From NCBI GenBank assembly GCA_903825565.1, contig CAIKBD010000196.1, positions 1 through 40,780 on the forward strand: a DNA stretch of 40,780 bases, written 5' to 3'. The notes under the pieces are model-generated. The model ran no database searches, was not told where the DNA came from, and saw nothing but the letters and a program-made list of their open reading frames with translations. The position numbers were made by a program, and so were the translations under genes. Below, one piece after another: positions 5,544 to 32,327 of the stretch (the stretch's first letter is position 1; each line of letters starts with the position of its first letter). Source of the stretch: an uncultured Anaerolineales bacterium. Lineage in GTDB: Bacteria > Chloroflexota > Anaerolineae > UBA4142.

Positions 5544-6713
5544 TCAATCCATAATTTTTTCGACGGCGGCGTGGATGCGCCGCAACGCCTCTTGAATATT
5601 TTCGAGCGAGTTGGCGTACGAGAACCGCAAGTATCCTTCGCCCGCCGCGCCGAATGCGGTACCGCTGAGACACGCGACGCCCGCTTCGTTCAGCAAGTAA
5701 TCCGCCAGCTTGCGCGAATCCCAACCGGTGTGTGTGGTGTTGGGAAACGCGTAGAACGCGCCGCGCGGTTTCAGGCATTTGAAGCCGGGAATCGCATTAA
5801 GCCCTTCCACAATCACATCGCGCCGCGCTTTGAACGCGGCAAGCATTTTCCCCACCGAGTCTTGCGGTCCCGTCAATGCTTCCAAGCCGGCGTACTGCGT
5901 AAACCCGGCGACGCACGAGGTCGAGTTCGTTTGCAAACGCGAAACCTGCGCCGCCAGTTCGGGCGGCATCACGCCCCAGCCCAGCCGCCAACCGGTCATT
6001 GAGTACGTCTTGCTGAATCCATCGAGCACAATCGTGCGATCTGCCAGCGTGGGCACGCTGAGCAAACTGCTAAACGCGCCGTCGTACAGCACCCGCCAAT
6101 AGATTTCGTCGGTGAAGATCACGCAGTCGTATTTCAGCGCGACTTCGGCAATCACCTGCAAGTCCGCCGTTTCCAGCACGCCGCCGGTCGGGTTTTGCGG
6201 CGAGTTGAGGATGATCATTTTCGTTTTGGGATTGGCTTTGGCGCGAAACTCGTCTGGGTCGAAGCGAAAGTGATTGGCTTCGCGCAAGATGTACGGCACC
6301 GGCTTGCCGCCGCAATAATTGATCATGCTTTCATAGATCGGAAAACCCGGATTGGGGTACAACACTTCGTCGCCCGGCTCGACGAGCGCGAGGATGGCAA
6401 AGAACATGATCGGTTTCGCGCCGGGCGTCACGACGACTTGGTTTGCTGTGATGTTGACGCCGCGTGTGGCGCTCGTGTGCGCGGCGATGGCTTCGCGCAA
6501 TTCCGGGATGCCGGCGCTGGGTGTGTATTTCGTTTTGCCATCGTGCACTGCGCGCACGCCCGCTTCGATGATATTTTCCGGCGTCGGGAAATCCGGTTCG
6601 CCCACTTCAAGGTGGATGATATTTCTGCCTTGCGCTTCCAGCGCTTTGGCTTTGACCAAAACCTCGAACGCGGTTTCGGTGCCGAGCAAGTTCATTCGTT
6701 GTGCGAGTCGCAT
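5544..6713 (-). CDS. Pyridoxal-phosphate aminotransferase, class I/II (aspartate aminotransferase-like)
   Basis: A protein of 389 residues of fold-type I. Recognisable blocks are IIHLEVGEPDFPTPENI near residue 32, the glycine-poor cofactor region VVVTPGAKPIMFF at 93-105, NSPQNPTGGVL at 170-180, the TDEIYWRVLY strand at 201-210 and the PLP lysine in DGFSKTYSMTGWRLG (Lys235). It transfers amino groups between amino and keto acids in the cytoplasm; the subfamily resembles archaeal/thermophile AspC-type enzymes, but the substrate is not certain. A GAAGGAG ribosome-binding site precedes the ATG. It starts 15 bases after the methyltransferase gene stops, so the two are probably co-transcribed from the promoter near 9780. 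Confidence 0.9.
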   Translation of the reverse strand: MRLAQRMNLLGTETAFEVLVKAKALEAQGRNIIHLEVGEPDFPTPENIIEAGVRAVHDGKTKYTPSAGIPELREAIAAHTSATRGVNITANQVVVTPGAKPIMFFAILALVEPGDEVLYPNPGFPIYESMINYCGGKPVPYILREANHFRFDPDEFRAKANPKTKMIILNSPQNPTGGVLETADLQVIAEVALKYDCVIFTDEIYWRVLYDGAFSSLLSVPTLADRTIVLDGFSKTYSMTGWRLGWGVMPPELAAQVSRLQTNSTSCVAGFTQYAGLEALTGPQDSVGKMLAAFKARRDVIVEGLNAIPGFKCLKPRGAFYAFPNTTHTGWDSRKLADYLLNEAGVACLSGTAFGAAGEGYLRFSYANSLENIQEALRRIHAAVEKIMD

Positions 6714-6728
6714 TATCTTCTCCTTCGT

Positions 6729-9161
6729 TCAATTTTTCTTTAGAACGATCAGAAATTCGGATTTCATCCCTTCCGGGTTTTTGTTTTTGCGGCGACCGAA
6801 CAGTTGCCGATTTTTGATCCGATCTTCAAGGACGCGCTGCAACGTCCAACCGCGCTCGCCGAAATACTCCGCGAAAACGCGCCAAGTTGCAACCTCGATG
6901 CCGTCAATTCTGGGATTGCCGACAAAAATGCATGCCGTGCCGCCGCCGCGCAAATAACGCATAGCGTTTTCAAACGCCTGCAGCGTAAAGCCAAAGTACG
7001 CATCTAACAGTGCGCGGAGATCGGGGCGCGTGAGGTTCGCTCGCACTGCGTTGAGTGTGGGCGTCTCGGGCGACAGCGTCGTTTTGCGGTACGGAATTTC
7101 CAGGCGGCTCAACTGTTTGATCTCGGCTTCGGTGTGCCCCAACCAATACAGTTCTAATTTCGAAGTTCGAATATACTCCTGCGCTTGCAAATAGGGCGGT
7201 GAACTGATCAGGCAATCTACCGCTTGGCTCTGCGCGGGTTGCCACGTTGCCGAATCAATGCCGGTGTATGTGACCACTTGGTTGTGGTTGTGCGCGAGGG
7301 TCGCGGCGAGTTGTTGTGCGCGCGTGAGGTTTTCTAACGCGGTCTCGGCAATGAACGCATCCAGTTGGGCGTGCCAGTCTTGTTGCAAGCGTGCGGCAAT
7401 TTCGGCGGCTTTGGTTTTCGACTTGAAGAGTTTGGGGGTTTTGTGCTCGGCATACGAAAATTGTTTGCTCGCTTTGAGCAACGCCGATTCGATGACGAGC
7501 GCATACGGATCGGCTCCCAATTGTTTTTGCCAGCCCCAGTAGCGGCTGAGCGTCTCTAGCATTTGCGGCGGATACCAGTACGCCAAGTTTGACCAGTCGG
7601 GATGGAAGGTCTGTGCGCTGGAGCGCATTTCGGCGAGTTGGCGCTGGAGCGTCGTTGCGTCCAAGTCGGTTCGCCGAAAGCGCATTTTCAAAGCGACGAT
7701 GTGTTGCAAAAGCGGATTGAGGTCGAGCAAGATTGCATTGCGTTCGCACAGTAGCGCTTCCAAGCCGACGGTGCCCGATCCAGCGAACGGATCAATGACC
7801 CAGCCATCGTACGGCGTAAACTCACGAATGCAATACCGCACTACCTGCGGAATGAACTTGGCGGGATAATAAAACAACCCGTGCGTCAAATAATTGGTGT
7901 CGGTGATTTCCGGGATCAGGGCGCGAAAACTAACCGGCTCCGGTTGCCCGGTGATTTCCGCTCGGGGAAAATCTAACAAGGGCGATTGCCGGTAAGTGCC
8001 GCGTGGTTCTGCCAGTGTGGGTGGGGGCGTCGCGCGGGCGCGTTCGTAAATCGCTTTGAGAAAAAGGAGATCGCGAATATATAAGGATTGATCCCCGGGT
8101 GAACGCACCGGCAGACTGTCTTCTTTCCACTCAGTGACAAGCCGCTGCGTAGCCAGATCGATAGACTGGCAAAGTTGAGCGTAAGACTTGAAATCGAAGG
8201 CAAGACCGAGGCGACTGAATTTTTGGTTCAGTAAACGAATATTGGAGACATTACGGAGCGCAAACGTATCAATTTCCAAGCTCGCAAGAGCATAAGCCAC
8301 CCATAGATCGTCCCAACTTTCAATTGTTTGCACAATATCGCGCACAGCGGATGCGGATTGAGAACCATCCGGATCATCCCAATCGAAAACGCTTTGGAGA
8401 ATTTCATCTGTGCCGTATGCCATTTTCAAAGTAATGCGTTTGGCTACGGGGATGCCTTTGCCAATTTGTTCAAATGCTTTGCGGTCGAGCGGCGTATGAT
8501 CTTTGAGCGAGTGATAGATTTTTTCGATGGTGGATTCACGCTGTTGAGCATCCCGTTGATCCCAAACGCAAATCAGATAGAGGATTTTATCTTTCGGCGT
8601 AACCTTGAGCCGAAGTAGCCCGCGCAATAAATCTACTAGCGAACCTTTGGCGGTTGTTCCGCCCGTGTCATCGCGAGAGCGCAATTGCATCACGATCATT
8701 TTGTGCGATTGCGGATTGACGCCCATTACATCAATGTCATTATGCGGAACCGGTTTGCCAAAAGACTTTTCCAAGAGTGGAAGCATCTCTTTTTTTACGC
8801 TATCGGGCACCAGAGAAAATTGGGTATGTTCGCGCAAAATTGTTTTGAAAACTTCTTCCAACACCTTGCCTTGGCGAGCGCGGTAGGAACTGTGAAAAAA
8901 CTGATGAAAAGAGAACATCAGCGAATAATAGCGCGCCGTTGCGTAATCCGGCGCAAGAGTTGCGGTTCGGTTGATTCCGGCGGCAAATTTTTTGATGCTA
9001 TCCAAGGCATCTTCCAACGATTGGAAATCTTCCTCGAACAAACAAGTGACGAGGTCGCGCGCTAGCTCCAAAGGACTGGCTAAAATGCGCTTTGCGGGAA
9101 TCGTTTGGGCGTTGTCGTCTGCTAAAAGGAGAAACGTTCTTGCCTGGTAAATATCATCCAT
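6729..9161 (-). CDS. Large DNA methyltransferase with additional N-terminal (possibly nuclease-like) region
   Basis: A protein of 810 residues. The C-terminal half is an adenine-N6 or cytosine-N4 DNA methyltransferase: a lead-in THGLFYYPAKFIPQVVR at about 426-442, the AdoMet-binding motif I DPFAGSG at 457-463, and the catalytic motif IV SSPPY at 653-657, giving the order I then IV. The N-terminal 350 residues are not a methyltransferase. The stretch HNDIDVMGVNP (141-150) followed by MIVMQLRSRDDTGG (155-168) resembles a PD-(D/E)XK nuclease core with Asp142/Asp144 and a QxR in place of ExK. If correct, this is a one-protein restriction-modification enzyme; otherwise it is an orphan methyltransferase. 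No separate nuclease or specificity gene is nearby. GGAG lies 8 bases before the ATG. It sits between a thioesterase and an aminotransferase gene, an unusual place for an R-M gene. Confidence 0.8.
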   Translation of the reverse strand: MDDIYQARTFLLLADDNAQTIPAKRILASPLELARDLVTCLFEEDFQSLEDALDSIKKFAAGINRTATLAPDYATARYYSLMFSFHQFFHSSYRARQGKVLEEVFKTILREHTQFSLVPDSVKKEMLPLLEKSFGKPVPHNDIDVMGVNPQSHKMIVMQLRSRDDTGGTTAKGSLVDLLRGLLRLKVTPKDKILYLICVWDQRDAQQRESTIEKIYHSLKDHTPLDRKAFEQIGKGIPVAKRITLKMAYGTDEILQSVFDWDDPDGSQSASAVRDIVQTIESWDDLWVAYALASLEIDTFALRNVSNIRLLNQKFSRLGLAFDFKSYAQLCQSIDLATQRLVTEWKEDSLPVRSPGDQSLYIRDLLFLKAIYERARATPPPTLAEPRGTYRQSPLLDFPRAEITGQPEPVSFRALIPEITDTNYLTHGLFYYPAKFIPQVVRYCIREFTPYDGWVIDPFAGSGTVGLEALLCERNAILLDLNPLLQHIVALKMRFRRTDLDATTLQRQLAEMRSSAQTFHPDWSNLAYWYPPQMLETLSRYWGWQKQLGADPYALVIESALLKASKQFSYAEHKTPKLFKSKTKAAEIAARLQQDWHAQLDAFIAETALENLTRAQQLAATLAHNHNQVVTYTGIDSATWQPAQSQAVDCLISSPPYLQAQEYIRTSKLELYWLGHTEAEIKQLSRLEIPYRKTTLSPETPTLNAVRANLTRPDLRALLDAYFGFTLQAFENAMRYLRGGGTACIFVGNPRIDGIEVATWRVFAEYFGERGWTLQRVLEDRIKNRQLFGRRKNKNPEGMKSEFLIVLKKN

Positions 9162-9201: not shown

Positions 9202-9726
9202 TCACTTTTTCTTCGCGCGCGTCAGCCGCAACTGTTGGCGCGCTTCGGCTTCATCCCAGCGCCGCCGGTCTTGGTCCGTTTCGAGAATGAGCGGGGGCAC
9301 GGTGCAGGGTTTGCCGGCGTCGTCGAGCGCGACGAACACGGCATACGCCGAGTTGGTGTGCGTGATCTCGCCAGTGATCGGATTCTCCGCCTCGACGCGC
9401 ACGCCGACCTCGATGGATGATTTGCCGACCCAGTTCACCGCCGAGTGCAACATAATAACGTGCCCCACGCGGACCGGCGACAAGAACGTGATCGAGTCCA
9501 TCGCTACGGTGACGACGGGACGGCGCGCGTGCCGCATCGCCGCGAGCGCGCCGGCTTCGTCCACCAACTTCATGACATATCCGCCGTGCACATTGCCTAG
9601 CGGGTTGGCATCCGATGGCATCATTTGTTGACTGAGCATTACTTGCGATTCGGACGCGCACTTGGCGGGCAAGCGCGCGTCGCCGCCGTGCACATTCAAT
9701 TCAACTTGCGGGCGTTCGTCGGTCAT
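9202..9726 (-). CDS. Acyl-CoA thioesterase (hotdog fold, YciA/BACH type)
   Basis: A protein of 174 residues with one hotdog domain. The signature is MMPSDANPLGNVHGGYVMKLVDEAGALAA, where Asn/His-Gly-Gly followed by Asp-Glu-Ala marks the acyl-CoA hydrolase active site. It is followed by VTVAMDSITFLSPVRVGHVI and SIEVGVRVEAENP. These enzymes cleave acyl-CoA to free acid and CoA in the cytoplasm. The tail is highly charged and ends in several lysines. A GAGGAAAAGT ribosome-binding site precedes the ATG at 9726, and a promoter lies at 9778-9805. It is the first gene of the three-gene minus-strand unit with the methyltransferase and aminotransferase. Confidence 0.88.
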   Translation of the reverse strand: MTDERPQVELNVHGGDARLPAKCASESQVMLSQQMMPSDANPLGNVHGGYVMKLVDEAGALAAMRHARRPVVTVAMDSITFLSPVRVGHVIMLHSAVNWVGKSSIEVGVRVEAENPITGEITHTNSAYAVFVALDDAGKPCTVPPLILETDQDRRRWDEAEARQQLRLTRAKKK

Positions 9727-10341: not shown

Positions 10342-10385
10342 ACAAAAAAGTTGGGCAAGTTTTCGGGCTTGCCCAACTTTTTTTA
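10342..10385. terminator. Bidirectional terminator between convergent genes
   Basis: Perfect 13-base stem AAAGTTGGGCAAG / CTTGCCCAACTTT, 8-base loop, A-run before and T-run after. It overlaps the stop codon of the minus-strand ATPase gene. Confidence 0.9.
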
Positions 10386-12101
10386 TTTGTTCGGTCGGGT
10401 GAGTCTGTCCCAGCCATCGCGGATTTTTTGCAGATTGCCGAGGACGGTGAGCACAAACGCGAGCGCGCTGACGAGCGAGATGCCGATGGAGATAATAAAG
10501 CCAGAATAAAAATCCACCCGAAAGGTGAGCGGGATGGTGTGCGTGGGCATCGCGCGATTCGCCGGTTGCACGATCAATTCGACGCGCCGTTCCTCCGTGC
10601 GCGGATTGAACGGATTGTACGGAATGACGCCAGCGCCATGTTGATTCAGCGTGATCGCAAAACGTTCCTGGCTTGCCGGGGGTTTGAGTTCGCGCCGCGC
10701 GGCACCCTCGAGCGAAATGTCGTCCGCCTGATCCTTGTTCAACGTGATCATGAGCGGCTCGCTGAATTTTTCGACTTCGACGCGAACTTGAGTCGGTGTG
10801 TCGGCATTAGCGCGCAGAATTGGATCGTAGCGCACGATAGCCGTCGCGCCGAATGCGGACAGTTCCGCGCGCGTGTTGATCGAGCGCGATGTCAGGAGAA
10901 TATCGGTGGCGTAAACGTAGAGAAACGGAAGGTTAACGAGCAACGTCACCAGTGCGATCAAGAGCAGGGAGACGCGCCACAAGGGAAACCGGCGCGGCGG
11001 GGTGATTTGCGGTGGTTCCGCCGGAATGTCAAACACATCCTGCAATGCGGCGAGGTAGATAGCATTCCGAACGACACACTGCGACTCGACTTCGCGGATC
11101 AATCCCAACATTTCCAATTTCACCGTGGCTTTGGTGTGCCGATTAAAGTTGACGGGTTTGCCGATGACGATGTCGCGGAGCGTTGCCTGAATCGTTGCGT
11201 CGGTATGCTCTTGCGCTTGGCGCAAGATGCGTTCGACGTGCCCGTCGTTGCGGAGAATTTCGGCGGCAGTTTGGTCAACCACTTTGGCGGTGATGGTGTG
11301 GGGATGGGTCTGCTCAATTACCTGGCACATTTTTTGCGTGAGGTACGGATGCCCGGCAGTATGATCGAAATTCAGTTGGGCAGTTTCACGCGGCGCGGCG
11401 ATGTTGAGCCGCGCAAAATTGGCGACGAGCGTTTGGACGCCGGCAACGTCAAAATCTTTGAGGTAGATGCGGTCGGTGATATTGTGGAGCGGCGAGTTGC
11501 GATCTTCCGCCGCGAGCCGTTGCAGTTCGTGCGCGCCGCTCAACACGAACAAGTATTTTTCAAACGCGGCGTCTTCTTCTTTGCGGCGGCTGGAAAAGAC
11601 ATGGCGGATTGTGCCGAAGAACGGCGTCGCCACGCTTTCGCGGATTGTTTCGACTTCGTCCAGCAAAATCACGATGCGCGGTGTTTGGGCTTGCCGCGCC
11701 ACGTCGAACAGGAATTGGCGAAAGGTGATCGAGTTGGTGGGGCGAATGAGGTCTTTGGGGACGGTGCCGCGCGGAAAGATCGGCGCGAGCTCGGTTCGCA
11801 TTTCGCTGGCGATGAACGCGTAGAGTTGATCCTCCGGCTGATTGTCCAGCAACGTGAGATCGATCAACGCGACGCCGATGCCGTATTGCCGCAGGCGCGC
11901 GCGCATTTGGTACAGCAGTGTAGTCTTGCCGGTTTGGCGTGAACCGAGCAATGCCAGGTACGCGTCAATCGTGTTGGCGCGTGCCACGCGCACCAGGCGT
12001 TCCAATTCGGGGCGAGCGACATGGATGGCGCTGTCGTTCACCGGGTCAAGGGGTCCCCACGTCTTGAAAAGCGAGTGTTCGGTCGAGTCGGGCAGGGTCA
12101 T
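10383..12101 (-). CDS. Membrane-anchored P-loop ATPase (AAA/STAND-like) with external beta-rich domain
   Basis: A protein of 572 residues. The N-terminal ATPase has Walker A GSRQTGKT at 53-60 and Walker B RIVILLDEVE at 142-151, in the arrangement of AAA-like/STAND NTPases. Residues about 290-365 look like a winged-helix region. A transmembrane helix follows at about 375-397 (LLLIALVTLLVNLPFLYVY), then about 135 residues predicted outside the cell and beta-rich, then a second helix at about 534-557, leaving a short cytosolic end. Its ATG overlaps the stop of the preceding propeller-ATPase gene by 4 bases (ATGA), so the two are translationally coupled and probably made in fixed ratio. I recognise no effector domain. 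Role is inferred to be a membrane signalling or complex-forming partner of the first ATPase. Confidence 0.8.
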   Translation of the reverse strand: MTLPDSTEHSLFKTWGPLDPVNDSAIHVARPELERLVRVARANTIDAYLALLGSRQTGKTTLLYQMRARLRQYGIGVALIDLTLLDNQPEDQLYAFIASEMRTELAPIFPRGTVPKDLIRPTNSITFRQFLFDVARQAQTPRIVILLDEVETIRESVATPFFGTIRHVFSSRRKEEDAAFEKYLFVLSGAHELQRLAAEDRNSPLHNITDRIYLKDFDVAGVQTLVANFARLNIAAPRETAQLNFDHTAGHPYLTQKMCQVIEQTHPHTITAKVVDQTAAEILRNDGHVERILRQAQEHTDATIQATLRDIVIGKPVNFNRHTKATVKLEMLGLIREVESQCVVRNAIYLAALQDVFDIPAEPPQITPPRRFPLWRVSLLLIALVTLLVNLPFLYVYATDILLTSRSINTRAELSAFGATAIVRYDPILRANADTPTQVRVEVEKFSEPLMITLNKDQADDISLEGAARRELKPPASQERFAITLNQHGAGVIPYNPFNPRTEERRVELIVQPANRAMPTHTIPLTFRVDFYSGFIISIGISLVSALAFVLTVLGNLQKIRDGWDRLTRPNK

Positions 12102-15100
12102 GGGGTCGCTCCCTGGGCGCTACGAATTTCTTGAGTGAAACTTCCGACCAGCCCGACGACATCTTGGCTACGCCGCAACACTTCGGGGAAGGCGTGCGCG
12201 GCGAAGGTGTACTTGGGTCCGTCGCGGCGTAAGATCGAGTAAAGGGTCAGTCCTTCAAAAGCGGCTTCCAGTTGTGCGGGCGGCACCGCGAGGTTGCGCG
12301 CGCGCAAGAGGTCGGCGATTTCGGGTTGGGTGACGGCAGGATGTTCCAACATCAATAACGTGATCAACCGTTCGAGTGGGGTGGCGTTGCCCCAGGAAAT
12401 TTCGACAAAGTATTCGGCGAATTGCGCCGAGCGCGCAATCGAATCAATATCGGCGCGCGTGATGATGCGTTCGCGGCGATGATTGATGCGCTCGATCAAT
12501 TGTTGACAGATGTATTGCACCAGGTTCGGGTGCTCCGCAGCAAGTTCAACCGTTTGATCGGCGAGATCGTTGCCTTCCTCCAAGGTGATGCCCATTTCTT
12601 GCATCGGGTCAATGACCACGCGGCGGGCTTCTTCTTTGGAGAGATAGGTCAGCGGGATCAAATTGCAGAAATTGAAAAAGACGAGTTGCGGATTATGCAG
12701 CGCGGCGTTGAGCACTTTTTCGCCACAAAACACAAAGCGCACCGGCAATTCTTGCGCGAGCGCACGAATAATCCGAAAGAGCGGTTCGCCGTTTTTAATG
12801 TCATAGTTCAGCAAGCTGTCAATTTCATCGAAGAGCATGACGATGGTGCGCGAGGGATATTGCGCGGGCAAGTCGGTGATGAGCCGGCGAAATGCTTCGG
12901 GGGTCGGCGTCGCCAGCGGCATTTTCCACATCGTGTCAATTGTTTCGAATAGCTCTTCGTGCGTGAGCACCGCTTGGCAGTCGAGATAAAACGGTTGATA
13001 TTCGGGCGCATCTTGCAACAGTTGGAACACGCGCGAGAGCACCGATGTTTTGCCGATTTTACGTCCGCCTACGATGGCAAAGTTGGTGTCGCGCACGGTG
13101 CGAACTATTGTTTTCAGTTCATGCTCGCGGCCAAAGAACATGTTGGTGGGCACGGGCCCGCTGGTGACGTATGGCGAGACAACGGTCAGATCAACCTGGC
13201 TCAAGATAATTTCGACGAGACGGCGTGCATGATCCCGGGCGTCCAGCAAATTACGAATGTTGCTACCATCCAACACGATAAAGTCGTGCGCGGCTTCGCG
13301 CACCAAGTGTTTGAACGATTGGCGCGGGTCTTTGGGCGGCGCATCGCGCAGATCAATGATCAGCGCAAAGTAGCTGACCATATTCAGCACGCCCATCAAA
13401 TCGCGCAGGGCTTCGAGATCGCTTTCTTGCGCTTGCCGGCGCGGCACAAAGATGATGGGAAAGCGCGGTGGAATTTTTAGTCGCAATGCCGGCGCGCGCA
13501 CGACGTATCCGATCAACCCTTTGTACGTGCGCTCGTCAATGCGGGTAAAGCCGAGCAACGAACAGAGTTGATCCACCATTTGACCGGTGACGGACTTGAA
13601 CGCTTCTTCGTTGCCGACCTCTTCCCAAGCGGCTTTCCAATGGCTGAGAAATTTTTGCGCGGTGATGAAATTATCCTGGCGCAAAACGGGTGGTACGGTT
13701 TGCAAATTCAACGCATCGGTAGGATGCACGGTGACGTAATATTGCAACGCGCGTGCTAGGTTGCGGCGCGGCATTTTGTGAAGCGTGCTACTGTTCGCTT
13801 CGCCGCTCGTGCGCAATGCCAAAGTGATTGCGTTTTCCCATTGTGCCCACTCTTGCTGCCATGCACGCGCTTTGGCGGCAGGACTGAATCGGGTGCGCCA
13901 TAGACCTGCGCCCACGCTAAATACAAGCAGGAGTGTCACCCCGCCCAGCGCGATGGCGGTGAGCCATTCGCTCGGTACGGTACTGCGAAACGAATCTGCG
14001 CCGCGCAACGCGCCATTGCCGTTGGTGCCGGCGAACACCGTTTCGGGGTTTTGCGGGTCAATGGCGATGGCTTGCACTTCGACATTCAGCGCCAAGCCGG
14101 TTTTGGCGGTAACCCAAGTTGCGCCGCTGTCGTCGCTGCGATAGATGCCGCGATCCGTGCCCGCGTACAGAATATTGGATGCGCTTGGGTTGAATGTGAG
14201 CGCGTACAACCGTTCCCGCGCCGGAAACGTGGCGCGTCCCAGGGCTTGCCATTTTTCGCCGGCATCGTCACTGCGATAGACGCCGTTGGAGACATAACCT
14301 ACCACCACCGTCTTTGGCGTGTGCGGATCGAAGAGCACCGCACGCACTTCATCGGCGGGCAATTGCGTGGATGCGTTTTGCCACGTGGCGTTGGGCGTAG
14401 CGCTGTTGAGCAGGTACAAACCGCGATCTGTTCCGGCATACAAGGTGTTGGGCGGCGCAAGGGTCAAGACATTTACGCGCGCGGAACTGCCCAAACCGTT
14501 GGTCTGCGGCGTCCACTTTTGTCCGCCATCCGTGCTCATGTACAACCCGTTGCCCCAGGTGCCGACGTACAACGCCGTGCGATTGTCCGCGTCGCGCACA
14601 ATCGCAAGACTGCCCAGCGGCGCATTCGCGGCGAGGTTTTCGACGAGGCGTGTGAAATTTGCGCCGCTATCCTGCGACACGAACAGCGAACTGCCCCAAC
14701 TGCCGGCGTAGACAGTGGCGGGGTTTTGCGGATCGGTGGTGAGCGAGGTGATGCGTGGATCGGGCACGCCGTTGACCTCGACCCAGGTTGCGCCGTGATC
14801 GGGACTGCGGAACAAACCGAAACTGGTGGCGGCGAGCAAAGCGCTGGGATTGCCGGCGGCGATGGCGAGTTGGTTGACGTTTGTGTTAATCAACCCTGTA
14901 TTGAGCGGCGTCCAGTTTTGACCCTCGTCCGTCGTTTTCCAAATCCCTTGGACGGTCGCCGCATACAATGTATTGGTGTTGCCCAATGCCAGCGAAACGA
15001 TAGACAGATTACCGAGCGATTTGGGAAGCAAGCCCCATGCGCCGCCGCCGTCGGTCGAGCGCACAATGCCTTGCGGGAGCACGGCAAAGAGCCGATCGGG

Positions 15101-15880
15101 TTGCTGAGCGTTGTTGATCAGCGGTCGGGCTTGCGCCGTGCTCGTGCCACTGCCGAGGAGACTCCACGTTTTGCCGTCACGATTGCGATACAGTCCTTGT
15201 GCTGTGCCAACGATCAGCCCGGTTTTGGTGACGACGATAGATTGCGGGCGCGCGCTTTCCGGCAATCCATCCGACATGGCTTGCCAACGCGCGCCGCGAT
15301 CCTTGGTTGCATATACGCCGCCATCCGTCGCCGCATACAACGTGCTGTCGCTTGCCAGCGCGAGGGCAGAGACGCGGACCGACTTGAGCTCCATCCCGAT
15401 GTCATTCCAGGTCTCGCCGTTGTTGTCACTCCGCAATACGGTGAGTGCTGTGCCGGCGTAAATCACTTGCGGGGTTTGCGGATCGATCAAGAATGTGTAA
15501 ACGAATTGGTTGGCGAACCGTTGATCGGCGGGAGCCCAACTTGTGCCGGCGTCGCGTGTGCGATAGATCCCATCGCGGGTGCCGGCAAAAGCCGTGTCGG
15601 GGTCGCGTGTCACTGCCAGCGCGTAAATCGTCGGATTGTCCGGCAAGCCCTTGGAAGTTGCCGTCCAGTGTGCGCCTTCATCGCGCGTGATAAACACCGC
15701 GTTATTCGAGCCGGCGTACAAGGTCAGGGGATTACTCGGCGCAATGGCGATCACGTTGATCAAGCCGCCTGGCGGGCCGCCGGTGGTTGTCCACTGGATA
15801 CCATTTTCTGCATAGGCAATGGCGACAGAGATGAGGAGTAGAGCGATGACCAAGCCAAATGTCGAGCGACGGAGTAGCAC
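12098..15880 (-). CDS. Transmembrane protein: external beta-propeller (BNR/YCF48-like repeats) fused to a cytosolic AAA/STAND ATPase
   Basis: A protein of 1260 residues with an unusual layout. After a signal-anchor (FGLVIALLLISVAIAYA, about residues 8-25) come some twelve or more repeats up to residue 630, each with the pattern LYAGT..GIY(R/K)S.D.G.TW. These are the Asp-box motifs of BNR/sortilin/YCF48-type propellers and would form one or two extracellular propellers. A transmembrane helix follows at about 640-662. The cytosolic half has an uncharacterised region (665-900), the box MFFGREHEL, Walker A GGRKIGKTS at 938-946, Walker B IVMLFDEID at 1013-1021 and a C-terminal winged-helix-like region. 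GTG 15880 is chosen because GGAGG lies 6 bases upstream and the signal peptide starts there; a longer ATG start at 16000 would place the promoter inside the gene. Coupled to the second ATPase by ATGA. Confidence 0.85.
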   Translation of the reverse strand: MLLRRSTFGLVIALLLISVAIAYAENGIQWTTTGGPPGGLINVIAIAPSNPLTLYAGSNNAVFITRDEGAHWTATSKGLPDNPTIYALAVTRDPDTAFAGTRDGIYRTRDAGTSWAPADQRFANQFVYTFLIDPQTPQVIYAGTALTVLRSDNNGETWNDIGMELKSVRVSALALASDSTLYAATDGGVYATKDRGARWQAMSDGLPESARPQSIVVTKTGLIVGTAQGLYRNRDGKTWSLLGSGTSTAQARPLINNAQQPDRLFAVLPQGIVRSTDGGGAWGLLPKSLGNLSIVSLALGNTNTLYAATVQGIWKTTDEGQNWTPLNTGLINTNVNQLAIAAGNPSALLAATSFGLFRSPDHGATWVEVNGVPDPRITSLTTDPQNPATVYAGSWGSSLFVSQDSGANFTRLVENLAANAPLGSLAIVRDADNRTALYVGTWGNGLYMSTDGGQKWTPQTNGLGSSARVNVLTLAPPNTLYAGTDRGLYLLNSATPNATWQNASTQLPADEVRAVLFDPHTPKTVVVGYVSNGVYRSDDAGEKWQALGRATFPARERLYALTFNPSASNILYAGTDRGIYRSDDSGATWVTAKTGLALNVEVQAIAIDPQNPETVFAGTNGNGALRGADSFRSTVPSEWLTAIALGGVTLLLVFSVGAGLWRTRFSPAAKARAWQQEWAQWENAITLALRTSGEANSSTLHKMPRRNLARALQYYVTVHPTDALNLQTVPPVLRQDNFITAQKFLSHWKAAWEEVGNEEAFKSVTGQMVDQLCSLLGFTRIDERTYKGLIGYVVRAPALRLKIPPRFPIIFVPRRQAQESDLEALRDLMGVLNMVSYFALIIDLRDAPPKDPRQSFKHLVREAAHDFIVLDGSNIRNLLDARDHARRLVEIILSQVDLTVVSPYVTSGPVPTNMFFGREHELKTIVRTVRDTNFAIVGGRKIGKTSVLSRVFQLLQDAPEYQPFYLDCQAVLTHEELFETIDTMWKMPLATPTPEAFRRLITDLPAQYPSRTIVMLFDEIDSLLNYDIKNGEPLFRIIRALAQELPVRFVFCGEKVLNAALHNPQLVFFNFCNLIPLTYLSKEEARRVVIDPMQEMGITLEEGNDLADQTVELAAEHPNLVQYICQQLIERINHRRERIITRADIDSIARSAQFAEYFVEISWGNATPLERLITLLMLEHPAVTQPEIADLLRARNLAVPPAQLEAAFEGLTLYSILRRDGPKYTFAAHAFPEVLRRSQDVVGLVGSFTQEIRSAQGATP

Positions 15881-15919
15881 AGCAATCCTCCACAGAGTGG
15901 GAATACCAGGGTTGAATTT

Positions 15920-15948
15920 ATTATACCCTACTTGGCGCGCAATGTAAA
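15920..15948 (-). promoter_or_regulatory. Promoter for the propeller-ATPase operon
   Basis: On the minus strand: TTTACA (15948-15943), 17-base spacer, perfect TATAAT (15925-15920). The predicted leader is about 33 bases and contains GGAGG before the GTG start. This strongly supports the shorter start. Confidence 0.8.
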
Positions 15949-15971
15949 AAAAGGAATGGGCATGATGCCGC

Positions 15972-17237
15972 TCATTTGCCGAACCAGCCGGGAAATACAC
16001 TCGTTGCCACCAAAATCACCGTGAGGAAAATCAGCGCAATGATCATTGCCCATGCCAGCGCATTAAAGATGCGTCCGTTGACATACTTGCCCATCAAGCG
16101 CGGGTCGTTGATCAATTTGAGCATCGTGATCAAAATGACCGGTAACAATACGCCGTTGAGCGTTTGACTCGCGAGCATTGCTTCGATCAACGACGGAATC
16201 GGCAACAAGATGATCGCCGCGCCCACGACGATCAGCGCGGTGTACACCGAGAAAAACACCGGCGCATCTTTCCAATCGCGGCTAACCCCCATTTCCCAGC
16301 CGAACGCCTCGCACACGACGTAGGCCGTCGAGAGCGGCAAGATCGCGGCGGAGAACACCGAGGCGTTGAGCAAGCCGAGCGCGAACAAACTCGCCGCATA
16401 CTCGCCCGCTAACGGCTTGAGCGCGAGCGCGGCGTCCTCTGCCGTTTTGATGTTGACGCCCGCGGCGAACAAGGTTGCGGCGCACGCAATCGTAATAAAC
16501 CCGGCGACGATCACGGCAAACACCGAACCTACGATCACATCGAGCCGTTCATAACCCAGTTCGTCTACCTTCAAGCCCTTGTCCACGATGGATGCCTGCT
16601 GATAAAATTGCATCCAGGGCGCAATCGTCGTGCCGATGATCGTGACAAAGATTGTGACGTAGCCGGCGTCGAAATGAAAACTGGGTGTGACGACCGCTTG
16701 GAGCACCTTGCCCCACGGCGGATTGGCGATCACGCCGGACAAGACATACGAAAAATAGATCGCGCTGGCGACGAGAAAGATGCGCTCGACCGATTTGTAA
16801 CTCGCCTTGACGATCAACAGCCACACGCCGAACGCAACGAGCGGCACCGAGAGGTACTTGCTCACGCCGAAAATTTCCATACTCGCGGCGACGCCGGCAA
16901 ATTCGCTGACAGTGTTGGCGAGGTTGGCGACCACCATCAACGCAATGATCGCTGCCGTCGCGCGCACGCCGAAACTCTCGCGGATCAGATCTGCCAAGCC
17001 CTTGCCGGTCACGATGCCGAGCCGCGCGCTCATTTCTTGCACGATGATCAGCGCCAGCGCGACGAGCGTCAGCATCCACAAGAGCGAATAGCCATAGTGC
17101 GCGCCCGCCACCGAATACGTGGTGATGCCGCCCGCATCGTTATCTACATTCGCCGTAATGATCCCCGGTCCGATCACCGACAGCATCAAGAGCAACCGGG
17201 TGCGCCAGGGTTTGGATTTTCGCAATGTCATCGTCAT
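15972..17237 (-). CDS. Nramp-family transporter, magnesium-type (NRMT-like)
   Basis: A protein of 421 residues with about eleven hydrophobic helices and the Nramp fold signatures, but with altered metal-site residues. The helix-1 motif that is DPGN in manganese/iron transporters reads DAGG at 34-37. The helix-6 motif that is (A)xxMPH reads TTIAPW at 203-208, so the metal-binding Met is Ala206 and the His is Trp208. Loss of the soft Met ligand with retention of the Asp is the pattern reported for Nramp-related magnesium transporters. It would import a divalent cation, probably Mg2+. The downstream ATG at 17237 is chosen because GGAGG lies 6 bases before it. It follows the PRC/MgtE_N/CBS gene by 71 bases, and MgtE domains sense Mg2+, which supports this reading. 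Annotation as mntH would be misleading. Confidence 0.85.
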   Translation of the reverse strand: MTMTLRKSKPWRTRLLLMLSVIGPGIITANVDNDAGGITTYSVAGAHYGYSLLWMLTLVALALIIVQEMSARLGIVTGKGLADLIRESFGVRATAAIIALMVVANLANTVSEFAGVAASMEIFGVSKYLSVPLVAFGVWLLIVKASYKSVERIFLVASAIYFSYVLSGVIANPPWGKVLQAVVTPSFHFDAGYVTIFVTIIGTTIAPWMQFYQQASIVDKGLKVDELGYERLDVIVGSVFAVIVAGFITIACAATLFAAGVNIKTAEDAALALKPLAGEYAASLFALGLLNASVFSAAILPLSTAYVVCEAFGWEMGVSRDWKDAPVFFSVYTALIVVGAAIILLPIPSLIEAMLASQTLNGVLLPVILITMLKLINDPRLMGKYVNGRIFNALAWAMIIALIFLTVILVATSVFPGWFGK

Positions 17238-30910: not shown

Positions 30911-32327
30911 CATACGCATCAAGCTAAGATTTAGAAAATAGAAGCCCTTGAGGTATGATAGAAGTTGCGACACATCCTCATCCTCAAAGGCTTCCAATGA
31001 CGAGTGTATCACAACTTTGCCAAATTTTCCAAACCGTTCTCACAACGGTTGCCGACCACGCTGCGCGTGCGACCTGTTTTGTGCAACGGCAATCCAAATT
31101 GACGGGTGCGAAATTTGTTCAGACCTTGGTCTTCGGTTGGTGGGATAATCCCGATGCCACCTACGAACAGTTGGCACAGATTGCTACGGGCTTGGGCGTG
31201 CCGATCACCGCGCAAGGTCTGGATAGTCGATTTACACCCGCGGCGGCGGATTGTCTGAAACAGATTCTGGAACGTGCGGTGCAAAACGTAATTGTCGCTG
31301 AGCCGGTGATGATTCCGTTGTTACAACGATTCAATGGCGTCTATCTCCAAGACGGCACGACCATCACCTTACCCGATGCTATCGCGCACCTCTGGCAGGG
31401 TTGCGGGGGCAGTACGCCCGCAGGGACGAGTGCCGCACTCAAAGCGCAAGTTCAGGTCAACCTCAGCGATGGACAACTGACTCACTTGGACTTGCAGGCA
31501 GGGCGAGCCTCTGATAAAACTGCGCCCATGCAAACGGCCGCGTTGCCCAAAGCGGCATTACGCATTGCGGATCTCGGTTATTTACCGATTCCGGTATTGG
31601 CGGCGTATGATCGCCAAGGCGTATTTTGGCTAACGCGTTACCAAGCCACTCTGTTGCTGTTTGACCCGGATGGGCAAGCCCTGGATTTGTTGCGCCTATT
31701 GCCTGCCACGGAGAAAACCGTGCTGGATCGCACCGTCCAGGTCAGCGAGCATCGGCTCGTCTGTCGGCTCGTGGCGGTCCGCGTGCCGCCCCAGGTCGCT
31801 GAAGAGCGACGACGCAAATTGCGCGCCGAAACGATCGAGAAAGGACGCACGCCTAGTGCACGCCAGTTAGCGTTATGCGATTGGGTCATCTTTCTCACCA
31901 ATGTCCCTCCCGAACGCTTGAGTGTGGCGGAAGGGCTCGTGCTGGCACGCGCACGGTGGCAAATTGAACTACTCTTCAAACTCTGGAAGTCTGATGGACA
32001 CGTCGCTCAATCGCGCAGTGCCAAGCCATATCGCATTTTGTGCGAGGTGTATGCCAAGTTGTTAATCATGCTGATGCAACACTGGGTCGCCATCACGTGC
32101 GGATGGCAACACCCCAATCGCAGTTGGTTGAAAACCGCGCAAACGATTCGCCAACATGTGATCTCGTTAGCGAGCGCCTTAGGTTCCGAAGAACAGATGA
32201 CCAAGGTATTTCATACGATTCAAGCCTGTTTGGCGAAAGGGGCACGGTTGAACCCGCGCAAAACGAAACCGAATTTGTATCAACTCTTGCTCGCGTGTGG
32301 CGAGAAGGGGTTAGCTTGATGCGTATG
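30911..32327 (+). mobile_element. IS4-family insertion sequence (IS231-like target choice)
   Basis: About 1417 bases. The ends are a perfect 17-base inverted repeat, CATACGCATCAAGCTAA. The 20 bases on either side are identical; since the target site is flanked by four G and four C, the true duplication could be anything from 12 to 20 bases. A 12-base duplication with ends starting CCCCC fits the 10-12 base duplications of the IS4/IS231 group, and G/C-run-flanked targets are also known for IS231. One transposase gene fills the element. It is inserted in the MITE-like copy B, so it is younger than that copy. Confidence 0.9.
30997..32319 (+). CDS. IS4-family DDE transposase
   Basis: A protein of 440 residues (454 if the ATG at 30955 is used). 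The DDE triad is suggested by LQDGTTITLP (first Asp), IADLGYLPIPVLAAYDRQG (second Asp region) and the C-terminal signature ARWQIELLFKLWK, which fits the IS4 R-x3-E-x6-K motif, here without the usual Tyr before the Arg. Between them is a beta-strand insertion domain with FLTNVPPERLS, as in IS4 transposases. ATG 30997 is preferred because AAAGG lies 6 bases upstream; for ATG 30955 the GAGG motif is too close. The reading frame is intact, so the element may still be active. Confidence 0.9.
   Translation: MTSVSQLCQIFQTVLTTVADHAARATCFVQRQSKLTGAKFVQTLVFGWWDNPDATYEQLAQIATGLGVPITAQGLDSRFTPAAADCLKQILERAVQNVIVAEPVMIPLLQRFNGVYLQDGTTITLPDAIAHLWQGCGGSTPAGTSAALKAQVQVNLSDGQLTHLDLQAGRASDKTAPMQTAALPKAALRIADLGYLPIPVLAAYDRQGVFWLTRYQATLLLFDPDGQALDLLRLLPATEKTVLDRTVQVSEHRLVCRLVAVRVPPQVAEERRRKLRAETIEKGRTPSARQLALCDWVIFLTNVPPERLSVAEGLVLARARWQIELLFKLWKSDGHVAQSRSAKPYRILCEVYAKLLIMLMQHWVAITCGWQHPNRSWLKTAQTIRQHVISLASALGSEEQMTKVFHTIQACLAKGARLNPRKTKPNLYQLLLACGEKGLA

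What the first reader, a model, noticed from the sequence alone, without database searches (positions are those of the whole stretch)
6729..9161. 810-residue DNA methyltransferase with a possible nuclease core in the N-terminal half
Motifs I (457-463) and IV (653-657) are clear. The 350-residue N-terminal part carries IDV then MQLRSRDDTGG, which is like the central strand pair of PD-(D/E)XK nucleases but with QxR for ExK. A single-chain restriction-modification enzyme or an inactivated one would both be of interest, as would its place in a metabolic operon.
Basis: partly seen in the sequence, partly recalled or inferred. Interest (0 to 1): 0.5.

Follow-up and report, generated by a model that had tools for sequence, protein, structure and literature searches.

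The report
Fused restriction and modification enzyme
One bacterial protein joins a DNA-methylating half to a half that looks like a new kind of DNA-cutting restriction enzyme, and in related microbes the two halves are separate neighbouring genes, so it is most likely a natural one-piece system against foreign DNA.

Summary
Confirmed and extended. Window 6729-9161 (minus strand) is an intact 810-codon gene. Residues 411-810 are an N4/N6-type DNA methyltransferase with motif order X-I-II-(about 190 residues)-IV and SSPPY. Residues 1-400 match no known family significantly, but they are a real family with ten carriers found. Five are fused to this methyltransferase (one interrupted), four are a separate gene overlapping the methyltransferase frame (three genomes, one virus contig), and one is decayed. 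D142, D144, Q159-x-R161 and RDDTGGxTAK are kept while most pairs are only 30-48% identical. An AlphaFold2 model of the core (mean pLDDT 70, pTM 0.71, four rows) gives the restriction-nuclease topology with these residues at the expected sites, though the QxR loop itself is modelled less surely. Of the 50 best structural rows, 27 are restriction enzymes; Z is modest (8.1 at best). A working single-chain restriction-modification enzyme is thus more likely than an orphan or dead one. It is not a classical Type IIG enzyme (those have a gamma-class methyltransferase). The metabolic-operon setting is incidental: in 7 of 7 relatives the flanking genes are directly adjacent. Cleavage, methylated base and target are untested; site-avoidance statistics did not reveal the target.

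The parts
6729..9161 (-). whole gene, 810 aa, N-terminal nuclease-like half fused to C-terminal DNA methyltransferase
   Evidence: translation; motif positions
8028..9161 (-). N-domain, residues 1-378; homologous to stand-alone genes in L040, L041, L042, L049
8367..9044 (-). residues 40-265, the stretch modelled; nuclease-like core about 94-261
   Evidence: AlphaFold2 model; structural comparison
8856..8885 (-). residues 93-102 YRARQGKVLE, at the start of the long core helix; E102 identical in the 8 of 9 rows that cover it
8724..8741 (-). residues 141-146 NDIDVM; D142 and D144 invariant, candidate metal-binding aspartates
8631..8687 (-). residues 159-177 QLRSRDDTGGTTAKGSLVD; Q159-x-R161 in the place of (D/E)xK, with invariant K172 and acidic residue 177
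7932..8027 (-). linker, residues 379-410; in other fused forms it holds a YQxxLF-type leader like that of the stand-alone methyltransferases (weak in the window itself)
   Evidence: inference
6729..7931 (-). methyltransferase domain, residues 411-810
   Evidence: Pfam N6_N4_Mtase E 2.8e-14; PADLOC MTase_II
7839..7868 (-). motif X-like YPAKFIPQVV, residues 432-441
   Evidence: motif name recalled
7773..7793 (-). motif I DPFAGSG, residues 457-463
7191..7205 (-). motif IV SSPPY, residues 653-657
5544..6713 (-). flanking aminotransferase gene; next to the thioesterase-like gene in relatives without the insert
   Evidence: function by reading the sequence
9202..9726 (-). flanking acyl-CoA thioesterase-like gene
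   Evidence: function by reading the sequence

Best explanation
The gene encodes a complete Type II restriction-modification system in one chain (subtype IIC in the broad sense). The C-terminal half methylates a short DNA target with S-adenosylmethionine, probably N4 of a cytosine (inferred from SPPY). The N-terminal half is a restriction nuclease with a PD-(D/E)XK-like fold whose site is D142/D144 ... Q159-x-R161. The usual acidic residue of (D/E)xK is Q and the usual lysine is R, with D/E177, E102, D164/D165 or K172 as possible substitutes. It should cut unmethylated copies of the target in incoming DNA, probably as a dimer. Because separate-gene versions exist, each half probably reads the target by itself, unlike Type IIG enzymes in which one specificity module serves both activities. 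Fusion fixes the 1:1 ratio and may delay cutting until dimers form. Shown: ORF, domain make-up, two-gene and fused relatives, conservation, predicted core fold, insertion at this locus. Inferred: cleavage, methylated base, shared target, role in defence.
For: Fused forms in five genomes (window; G416, interrupted; G419/L038; G1009/L045; G926/L046) and separate N-domain genes overlapping the methyltransferase frame in three genomes and a virus contig (L040, L041, L042, L049). D142, D144, Q159, R161, R163, D164, D165 and K172 identical in 9 of 9 rows, also in broken L047. AlphaFold2 core with the restriction-nuclease order of helices and strands; of the 50 structural rows shown, 27 are restriction enzymes by title, best BstEII Z 8.1. 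G413 carries a 62-64% identical methyltransferase preceded instead by an unrelated ORF that hits a PADLOC Type II restriction-enzyme model, E 7.6e-5, so this methyltransferase lineage is found in R-M-like pairs. Open frame, and constraint on the N-half where measurable (dN/dS 0.35). Engineered precedent: fusing eco29kI R and M genes gives an active IIC enzyme (PMC3039593, abstract and passages).
Against: No significant sequence match of the N-domain to any characterised nuclease. The model rests on four rows (one partial); window residues 40-93 and 165-173 are below pLDDT 50, and the ten-residue blocks 120-129, 160-169 (which holds R161) and 170-179 average 61, 52 and 66. Foldseek's best E is only 0.012, and Z 8.1 is at the level the tool calls common for models without a clear match. 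The full-length model is poor (pLDDT 50). (D/E)xK is absent: lysine is known to be replaced by E, Q or N in active enzymes (PMC4081073, passage), R is not named in that passage, and two BsaHI relatives lacking ExK were reported inactive (unpublished data cited in PMC2413257, passage). The G416 copy is interrupted and the G922 copy decayed. No footprint of a target site that follows the gene.
Confidence: 0.7

Rival explanations
1. The N-domain has the nuclease fold but no cleavage activity. The protein is a solitary methyltransferase with a DNA-binding or dimerising relic, kept for epigenetic or regulatory use.
For: QxR instead of ExK; two BsaHI relatives without ExK were reported inactive (PMC2413257 passage); one carrier has a decayed N-domain with an intact methyltransferase (L047); related viral methyltransferases STSV1/STSV2 have no N-domain.
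Against: A dead site should drift, yet D142, D144, QxR, RDDTGG and K172 are identical in 9 of 9 rows although 33 of 36 pairs are only 30-48% identical. It persists as a separate gene in four carriers.
Confidence: 0.2
2. The N-domain is not a nuclease but an accessory subunit (target recognition or regulation) of the methyltransferase, and cutting is done by another protein such as the P0002-like nuclease.
For: In virus contig L049 the N-gene, the methyltransferase and a P0002-like gene lie together, so cutting could belong to the latter.
Against: Of 11 genomes or records searched with P0002, only its own source G413 and the L049 record matched; the window's genome did not (several genomes are incomplete). 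G413 has P0002 and the methyltransferase but no N-domain. The predicted fold is nuclease-like.
Confidence: 0.1
3. The N-domain is a methylation-dependent or nicking nuclease with a role other than classical restriction (for example DNA repair).
For: QxK-type sites occur in Mrr and MspJI nucleases (PMC12707154 passages); four nickase entries are among the structural rows.
Against: A methylation-dependent nuclease fused to a methyltransferase of the same target would be suicidal; patchy spread and insertion at unrelated loci look like a defence gene.
Confidence: 0.05

Closest known systems
Type IIC combined R-M enzymes (MmeI, BpuSI and others)
   Same: in the majority the nuclease domain is N-terminal and the methyltransferase domain follows in one chain (PMC4081073 passages)
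   Different: the majority have a gamma-class NPPY/F/W methyltransferase, and IIG enzymes a shared specificity module; here the motif order is X-I-II-(long gap)-IV with SSPPY, and IV lies about 150 residues before the C-terminus with no evident separate specificity domain
BtgZI
   Same: Type IIC enzyme with an alpha-class methyltransferase and Q in place of E in the nuclease motif (PMC4081073 passage)
   Different: order reversed there (methyltransferase first); here lysine is also replaced by R; no sequence comparison was possible
RM.Eco29kI (engineered fusion)
   Same: an R gene and the overlapping downstream M gene joined into one active chain (PMC3039593 abstract and passages)
   Different: man-made, GIY-YIG nuclease; here a natural fusion with a PD-(D/E)XK-like core
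Sulfolobus virus STSV1/STSV2 DNA methyltransferase (STSV1 record: 'similar to PspGI methylase')
   Same: 36-37% identity over residues 405-809
   Different: methyltransferase only; no N-domain; neighbours in STSV2 are unrelated genes
CCGG-family restriction enzymes (Bse634I, PfoI, Kpn2I, SgrAI, AgeI, PspGI, Ecl18kI, EcoRII)
   Same: 12 of the 27 restriction-enzyme rows of the structural comparison belong here (membership from PMC6344858 passages, Bse634I recalled); an acidic residue follows the strand, and R163-D164 resembles the family's R-(D/E)R motif
   Different: no lysine at the catalytic place; spacing differs; no sequence match; CCGG and CCWGG not depleted in the window's genome sample

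Membership tests
Type IIC combined R-M enzyme | nuclease and methyltransferase domains in one chain | tested here: met
   methyltransferase by Pfam; nuclease core by predicted fold only
Type IIC combined R-M enzyme | both activities shown | not testable with these tools
   needs protein or clone
Type IIG | gamma-class methyltransferase domain (definition in PMC4081073, section 30) | tested here: not met
   motifs X 432-441, I 457-463, II about 478-483, IV 653-657 with about 190 residues between I and IV, and SSPPY not NPPY; class rules partly recalled
Type IIG | AdoMet stimulates or is needed for cleavage | not testable with these tools
   biochemistry
[quoted passage not shown]
   predicted only: (core blocks mostly 70-92, three blocks 52-66); 27 of 50 rows restriction enzymes, Z 8.1 and below
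PD-(D/E)XK nuclease fold | (D/E)xK letters on the third strand | tested here: not met
   Q159-x-R161 in 9 of 9 rows; the motif is known to vary (PMC4081073 passage), so this lowers the claim of a canonical site, not of the fold
CCGG-family restriction enzymes | PD...K...D/E site and R-(D/E)R recognition motif | tested here: inconclusive
   D144 and D/E177 present, lysine absent at 161, R163-D164 present with other spacing; weak structural rows
Orphan methyltransferase | no linked restriction nuclease | tested here: not met
   nuclease-like N-domain fused here, and a separate adjacent gene in four carriers; its activity is untested
N4-cytosine methyltransferase | methylates N4 of cytosine | not testable with these tools
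   SPPY is the recalled m4C form of motif IV; no methylome

The most novel reading that the evidence does not exclude
This is an undescribed restriction-nuclease family whose active site uses D...Q-x-R, with arginine in place of the catalytic lysine or with a relocated lysine (K172). It occurs both as a separate gene and as a natural single-chain fusion to an alpha-order, probably m4C, methyltransferase in which each half reads the target by itself: nature's version of the engineered RM.Eco29kI. The same methyltransferase lineage can exchange this nuclease for an unrelated one (G413), and a virus carries both nucleases with one methyltransferase (L049).
Probability: 0.5. Interest if true: 0.6.

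Novelty: new variant of a known kind. Interest (0 to 1): 0.45.

Why it matters
[quoted passage not shown] A natural fusion of an independent restriction nuclease with an SPPY methyltransferase, with two-gene relatives still in existence, makes the proposed gene-fusion route to such enzymes directly testable. An invariant QxR site would extend what is accepted as an active restriction nuclease; the profile libraries searched here did not recognise this one.

Tried and rejected
Profile libraries with the N-domain: nothing significant in Pfam, NCBIfam, PADLOC, PHROGs or PDB sequences. A faint GajB hit (2 of 10 members, best E 0.001) and one SspG hit (1 of 10, E 0.0018) were not followed.

Target site from word depletion (samples 7-113 kb per genome). 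GGCC is depleted about 17-fold in the window, but is also at 0.31 or below in 14 of 15 order genomes without the gene, so it is not diagnostic. CCGG and CCWGG are not depleted in G000, G413 or G416. CCWGG is at 0.12-0.35 in the four carriers of the other phylum (G419, G595, G590, G587), but the control shows pooled 0.44 in 20 genomes without the gene drawn near them by handle number, many at 0.15-0.45, so it is not diagnostic either. GCWGC is at 0.27 in G000 and 0.06 in G413 against 0.97 pooled in 15 order genomes without the system (rank 4 of 467 motifs tested). But it is 0.70 in G416, 0.67 in G419, 0.49 in G595, 0.91 in G590 and G587, 0.82 in G926, and also low in three genomes without the gene (G411 0.58; G408 and G418 with few sites). 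It is a lead at most.

Tree of the methyltransferases: too few supported forks to say whether fusion happened once, or whether the two-gene forms L040-L042 are derived.

First structure job (three rows, whole N-domain): pLDDT 50, not used. Foldseek on viral models: no match at E 0.001. Viral-contig scans found no relative; L053 is a chance pattern match.

Literature: searches listed no paper that by title or start of abstract describes a natural fusion of this kind or a QxR restriction nuclease. I opened six papers, mostly passages. The library holds only open-licence papers, so this is no proof of absence.

Full report
Observation. The quoted motifs sit at the quoted residues. Pfam gives N6_N4_Mtase (E 2.8e-14) for the C-terminal half only; PADLOC calls it a Type II methyltransferase (E 7.3e-22). 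Residues 1-415 hit nothing in Pfam and nothing convincing in NCBIfam, PADLOC or PDB sequences.

Methyltransferase half. The order is YPAKFIPQVV (432-441, motif X-like), DPFAGSG (457-463, I), LLDLNP (478-483, II), then a long stretch, then SSPPY (653-657, IV), about 190 residues after I. This is the order of alpha classes, with the target-recognition part between I-III and IV; SPPY usually marks N4-cytosine enzymes (class and motif names recalled; the alpha order is also described in PMC5867850, passage). The closest named relatives found are the Sulfolobus virus STSV1/STSV2 methyltransferases, 36-37% identical, the STSV1 one annotated 'similar to PspGI methylase'.

Relatives of the N-half. It is rare. 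With the single sequence, 1 of 400 phylum genomes matched, the window's own. With a three-row profile, 5 of 396 class genomes matched (including the window's own and G416), and 4 of 291 genomes in the phylum of L038's genome, including that genome. A genome-contig scan found L037 (same contig as G416:C244) and L038. A virus-contig scan found L049, whose contig also has a terminase gene. With L038's N-domain there was no match in plasmids or phages at E 1; with the whole window protein the rows listed start at residue 364 or later (2 of 22 plasmid records were not listed).

Forms. Fused: window 810 aa, L038 846 aa, L045 833 aa, L046 818 aa, and G416, whose gene is cut in two at contig ends. There the two ends share an 8-base repeat, and the sequence beyond begins with inverted ends, as after insertion of a transposable element. 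Separate genes: L040 (413 aa, overlapping the 435-aa methyltransferase gene by 11 bases), L041 and L042 (overlapping frames, exact methyltransferase start unknown; L042 is cut by the contig end), and L049 (388 aa, overlapping frame of a 425-aa methyltransferase). Decayed: L047 (two stops inside the N-part; methyltransferase intact). That is five fused, four separate and one decayed among ten carriers.

Exchange of the nuclease. G413, in the window's family, has a methyltransferase 64% identical in its domain to the window's but no N-domain. Its upstream neighbour is an unrelated 334-aa ORF, P0002, that hits a PADLOC Type II restriction-enzyme model at E 7.6e-5. The virus contig L049 carries an N-domain gene, the methyltransferase and a P0002-like gene (35% identical) in one cluster. 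Of 11 genomes or records searched with P0002, only G413 itself and that virus record matched.

Conservation. Across nine N-domains (33 of 36 pairs 30-48% identical, the others 63, 71 and 90%), D142, D144, Q159, R161, S162, R163, D164, D165, T166, G167, G168, T170, A171, K172, S174 and L175 are identical; residue 177 is D or E; E102 is identical in the eight rows that cover it. The N-half is under constraint: dN/dS 0.35 for L041/L042. The other two N-half pairs are saturated at synonymous sites, with pN 0.27 for window/L037 and 0.18 for L045/L046.

Fold. AlphaFold2 on residues 40-265 with three permitted relatives gave mean pLDDT 69.6 and pTM 0.71. Order in window numbering: helix 94-112; strand 145-149 directly after D142/D144; strand 154-161 with Q159 and R161; helix 177-184; strand 192-199; further helix and strands. 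This is the restriction-nuclease core with the candidate residues where PD and (D/E)xK normally sit. Residues 40-93 and the 165-173 loop are below 50, and the blocks 120-129, 160-169 and 170-179 average 61, 52 and 66, so the QxR end of the strand and what follows are the less sure part. VIA-align compared the 1000 chains that Foldseek ranks highest; 425 had Z 2 or more and 50 entries are shown: BstEII Z 8.1 (rmsd 4.2, 146 residues), McrC 7.3, Bse634I 6.9, PfoI 6.9, and so on. By title 27 of 50 rows are restriction enzymes (McrBC and nickases included), 15 more are other nucleases or nuclease folds (partly recalled), 8 are neither or unclear. Single Z-scores of this size mean little, as the tool warns; the agreement of the list is the evidence. 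Foldseek alone is weak (EcoO109I E 0.012; viral models none at 0.001).

Place in the genome. In 7 of 7 family genomes with a close (78-84%) aminotransferase orthologue (G415, G406, G417, G412, G410, G413, G411) the thioesterase-like gene lies directly next to it with a gap of about 28-97 bases. Three more distant paralogues (55%) in these genomes lack that neighbour and were not counted; three further genomes of the eleven searched (G416, G418, G407) had no match at the strict limit. Only the window's genome has the R-M gene between them. Its third-position GC is 0.50 in the N-half and 0.65 in the methyltransferase half, against 0.67-0.79 in the six other window genes measured. In relatives the gene lies elsewhere: after mreC-like genes (L045, L046), beside mutS (L038), beside glyS (L040) (names by reading the sequence). 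It looks like a horizontally acquired insert, not part of metabolism.

How it likely works. The methyltransferase half marks the host's copies of the target; the N-half, as a dimer, cuts unmarked copies. For Type IIC enzymes it has been argued that a fused chain is a methyltransferase first and a nuclease only once enough protein has dimerised (PMC12707154 passage), which would ease entry into a new host. Every step after fold and conservation is inference.

Against known kinds. Most IIC enzymes join an N-terminal PD-D/EXK domain to a gamma-class methyltransferase; BtgZI is given as an exception with an alpha-class methyltransferase first and a nuclease with Q for E last (PMC4081073 passages; section 30). 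The window protein fits neither. The engineered RM.Eco29kI shows that simple R-M gene fusion gives a working enzyme (PMC3039593, abstract and passages). Active nucleases with lysine replaced by E, Q or N are known (PMC4081073 passage); arginine is not named in the passages I saw.

Target. Not determined. Depletion of GGCC and CCWGG is shared by neighbours without the gene; GCWGC is low in G000 and G413 but not in all carriers, and low in a few genomes without the gene.

Noticed in passing
window and G000 sample; order genomes G400-G418: GGCC is at 0.03-0.31 of expectation in 14 of 15 order genomes without this gene (G410 is the exception, 0.80) and 0.06-0.10 in G000, G413, G416; AGCT and CATG are also low in several. 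An order-wide site avoidance unrelated to this gene.
   Followed up: partly
L049 10872-11891 and L009 2899-3903: A second unnamed nuclease-like family (P0002/P0006, 34% identical to each other) sits beside the same methyltransferase family; its SIK/SIR strand motif also alternates K and R.
   Followed up: partly
L037 1-110 and L026 1865-2105 (G416): The fused gene of a close relative is split between two contig ends with an 8-base repeat and inverted ends, as by a transposable element.
   Followed up: partly
L038 3557-7332: A HerA-like ATPase and a NurA-like gene lie next to, and divergent from, the fused R-M gene (names by reading the sequence).
   Followed up: no
window 10383-16000: Two adjacent genes with ATPase-like parts, one joined to a long stretch of BNR/sialidase-like repeats (1300 aa); read from the sequence only, function unknown.
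   Followed up: no
window 30955-32319: ORF that reads like an IS4-type transposase.
   Followed up: no
L047 1-680 (G922): N-domain decayed by stops while the adjacent methyltransferase is intact: an R-M system perhaps turning into an orphan methyltransferase.
   Followed up: partly
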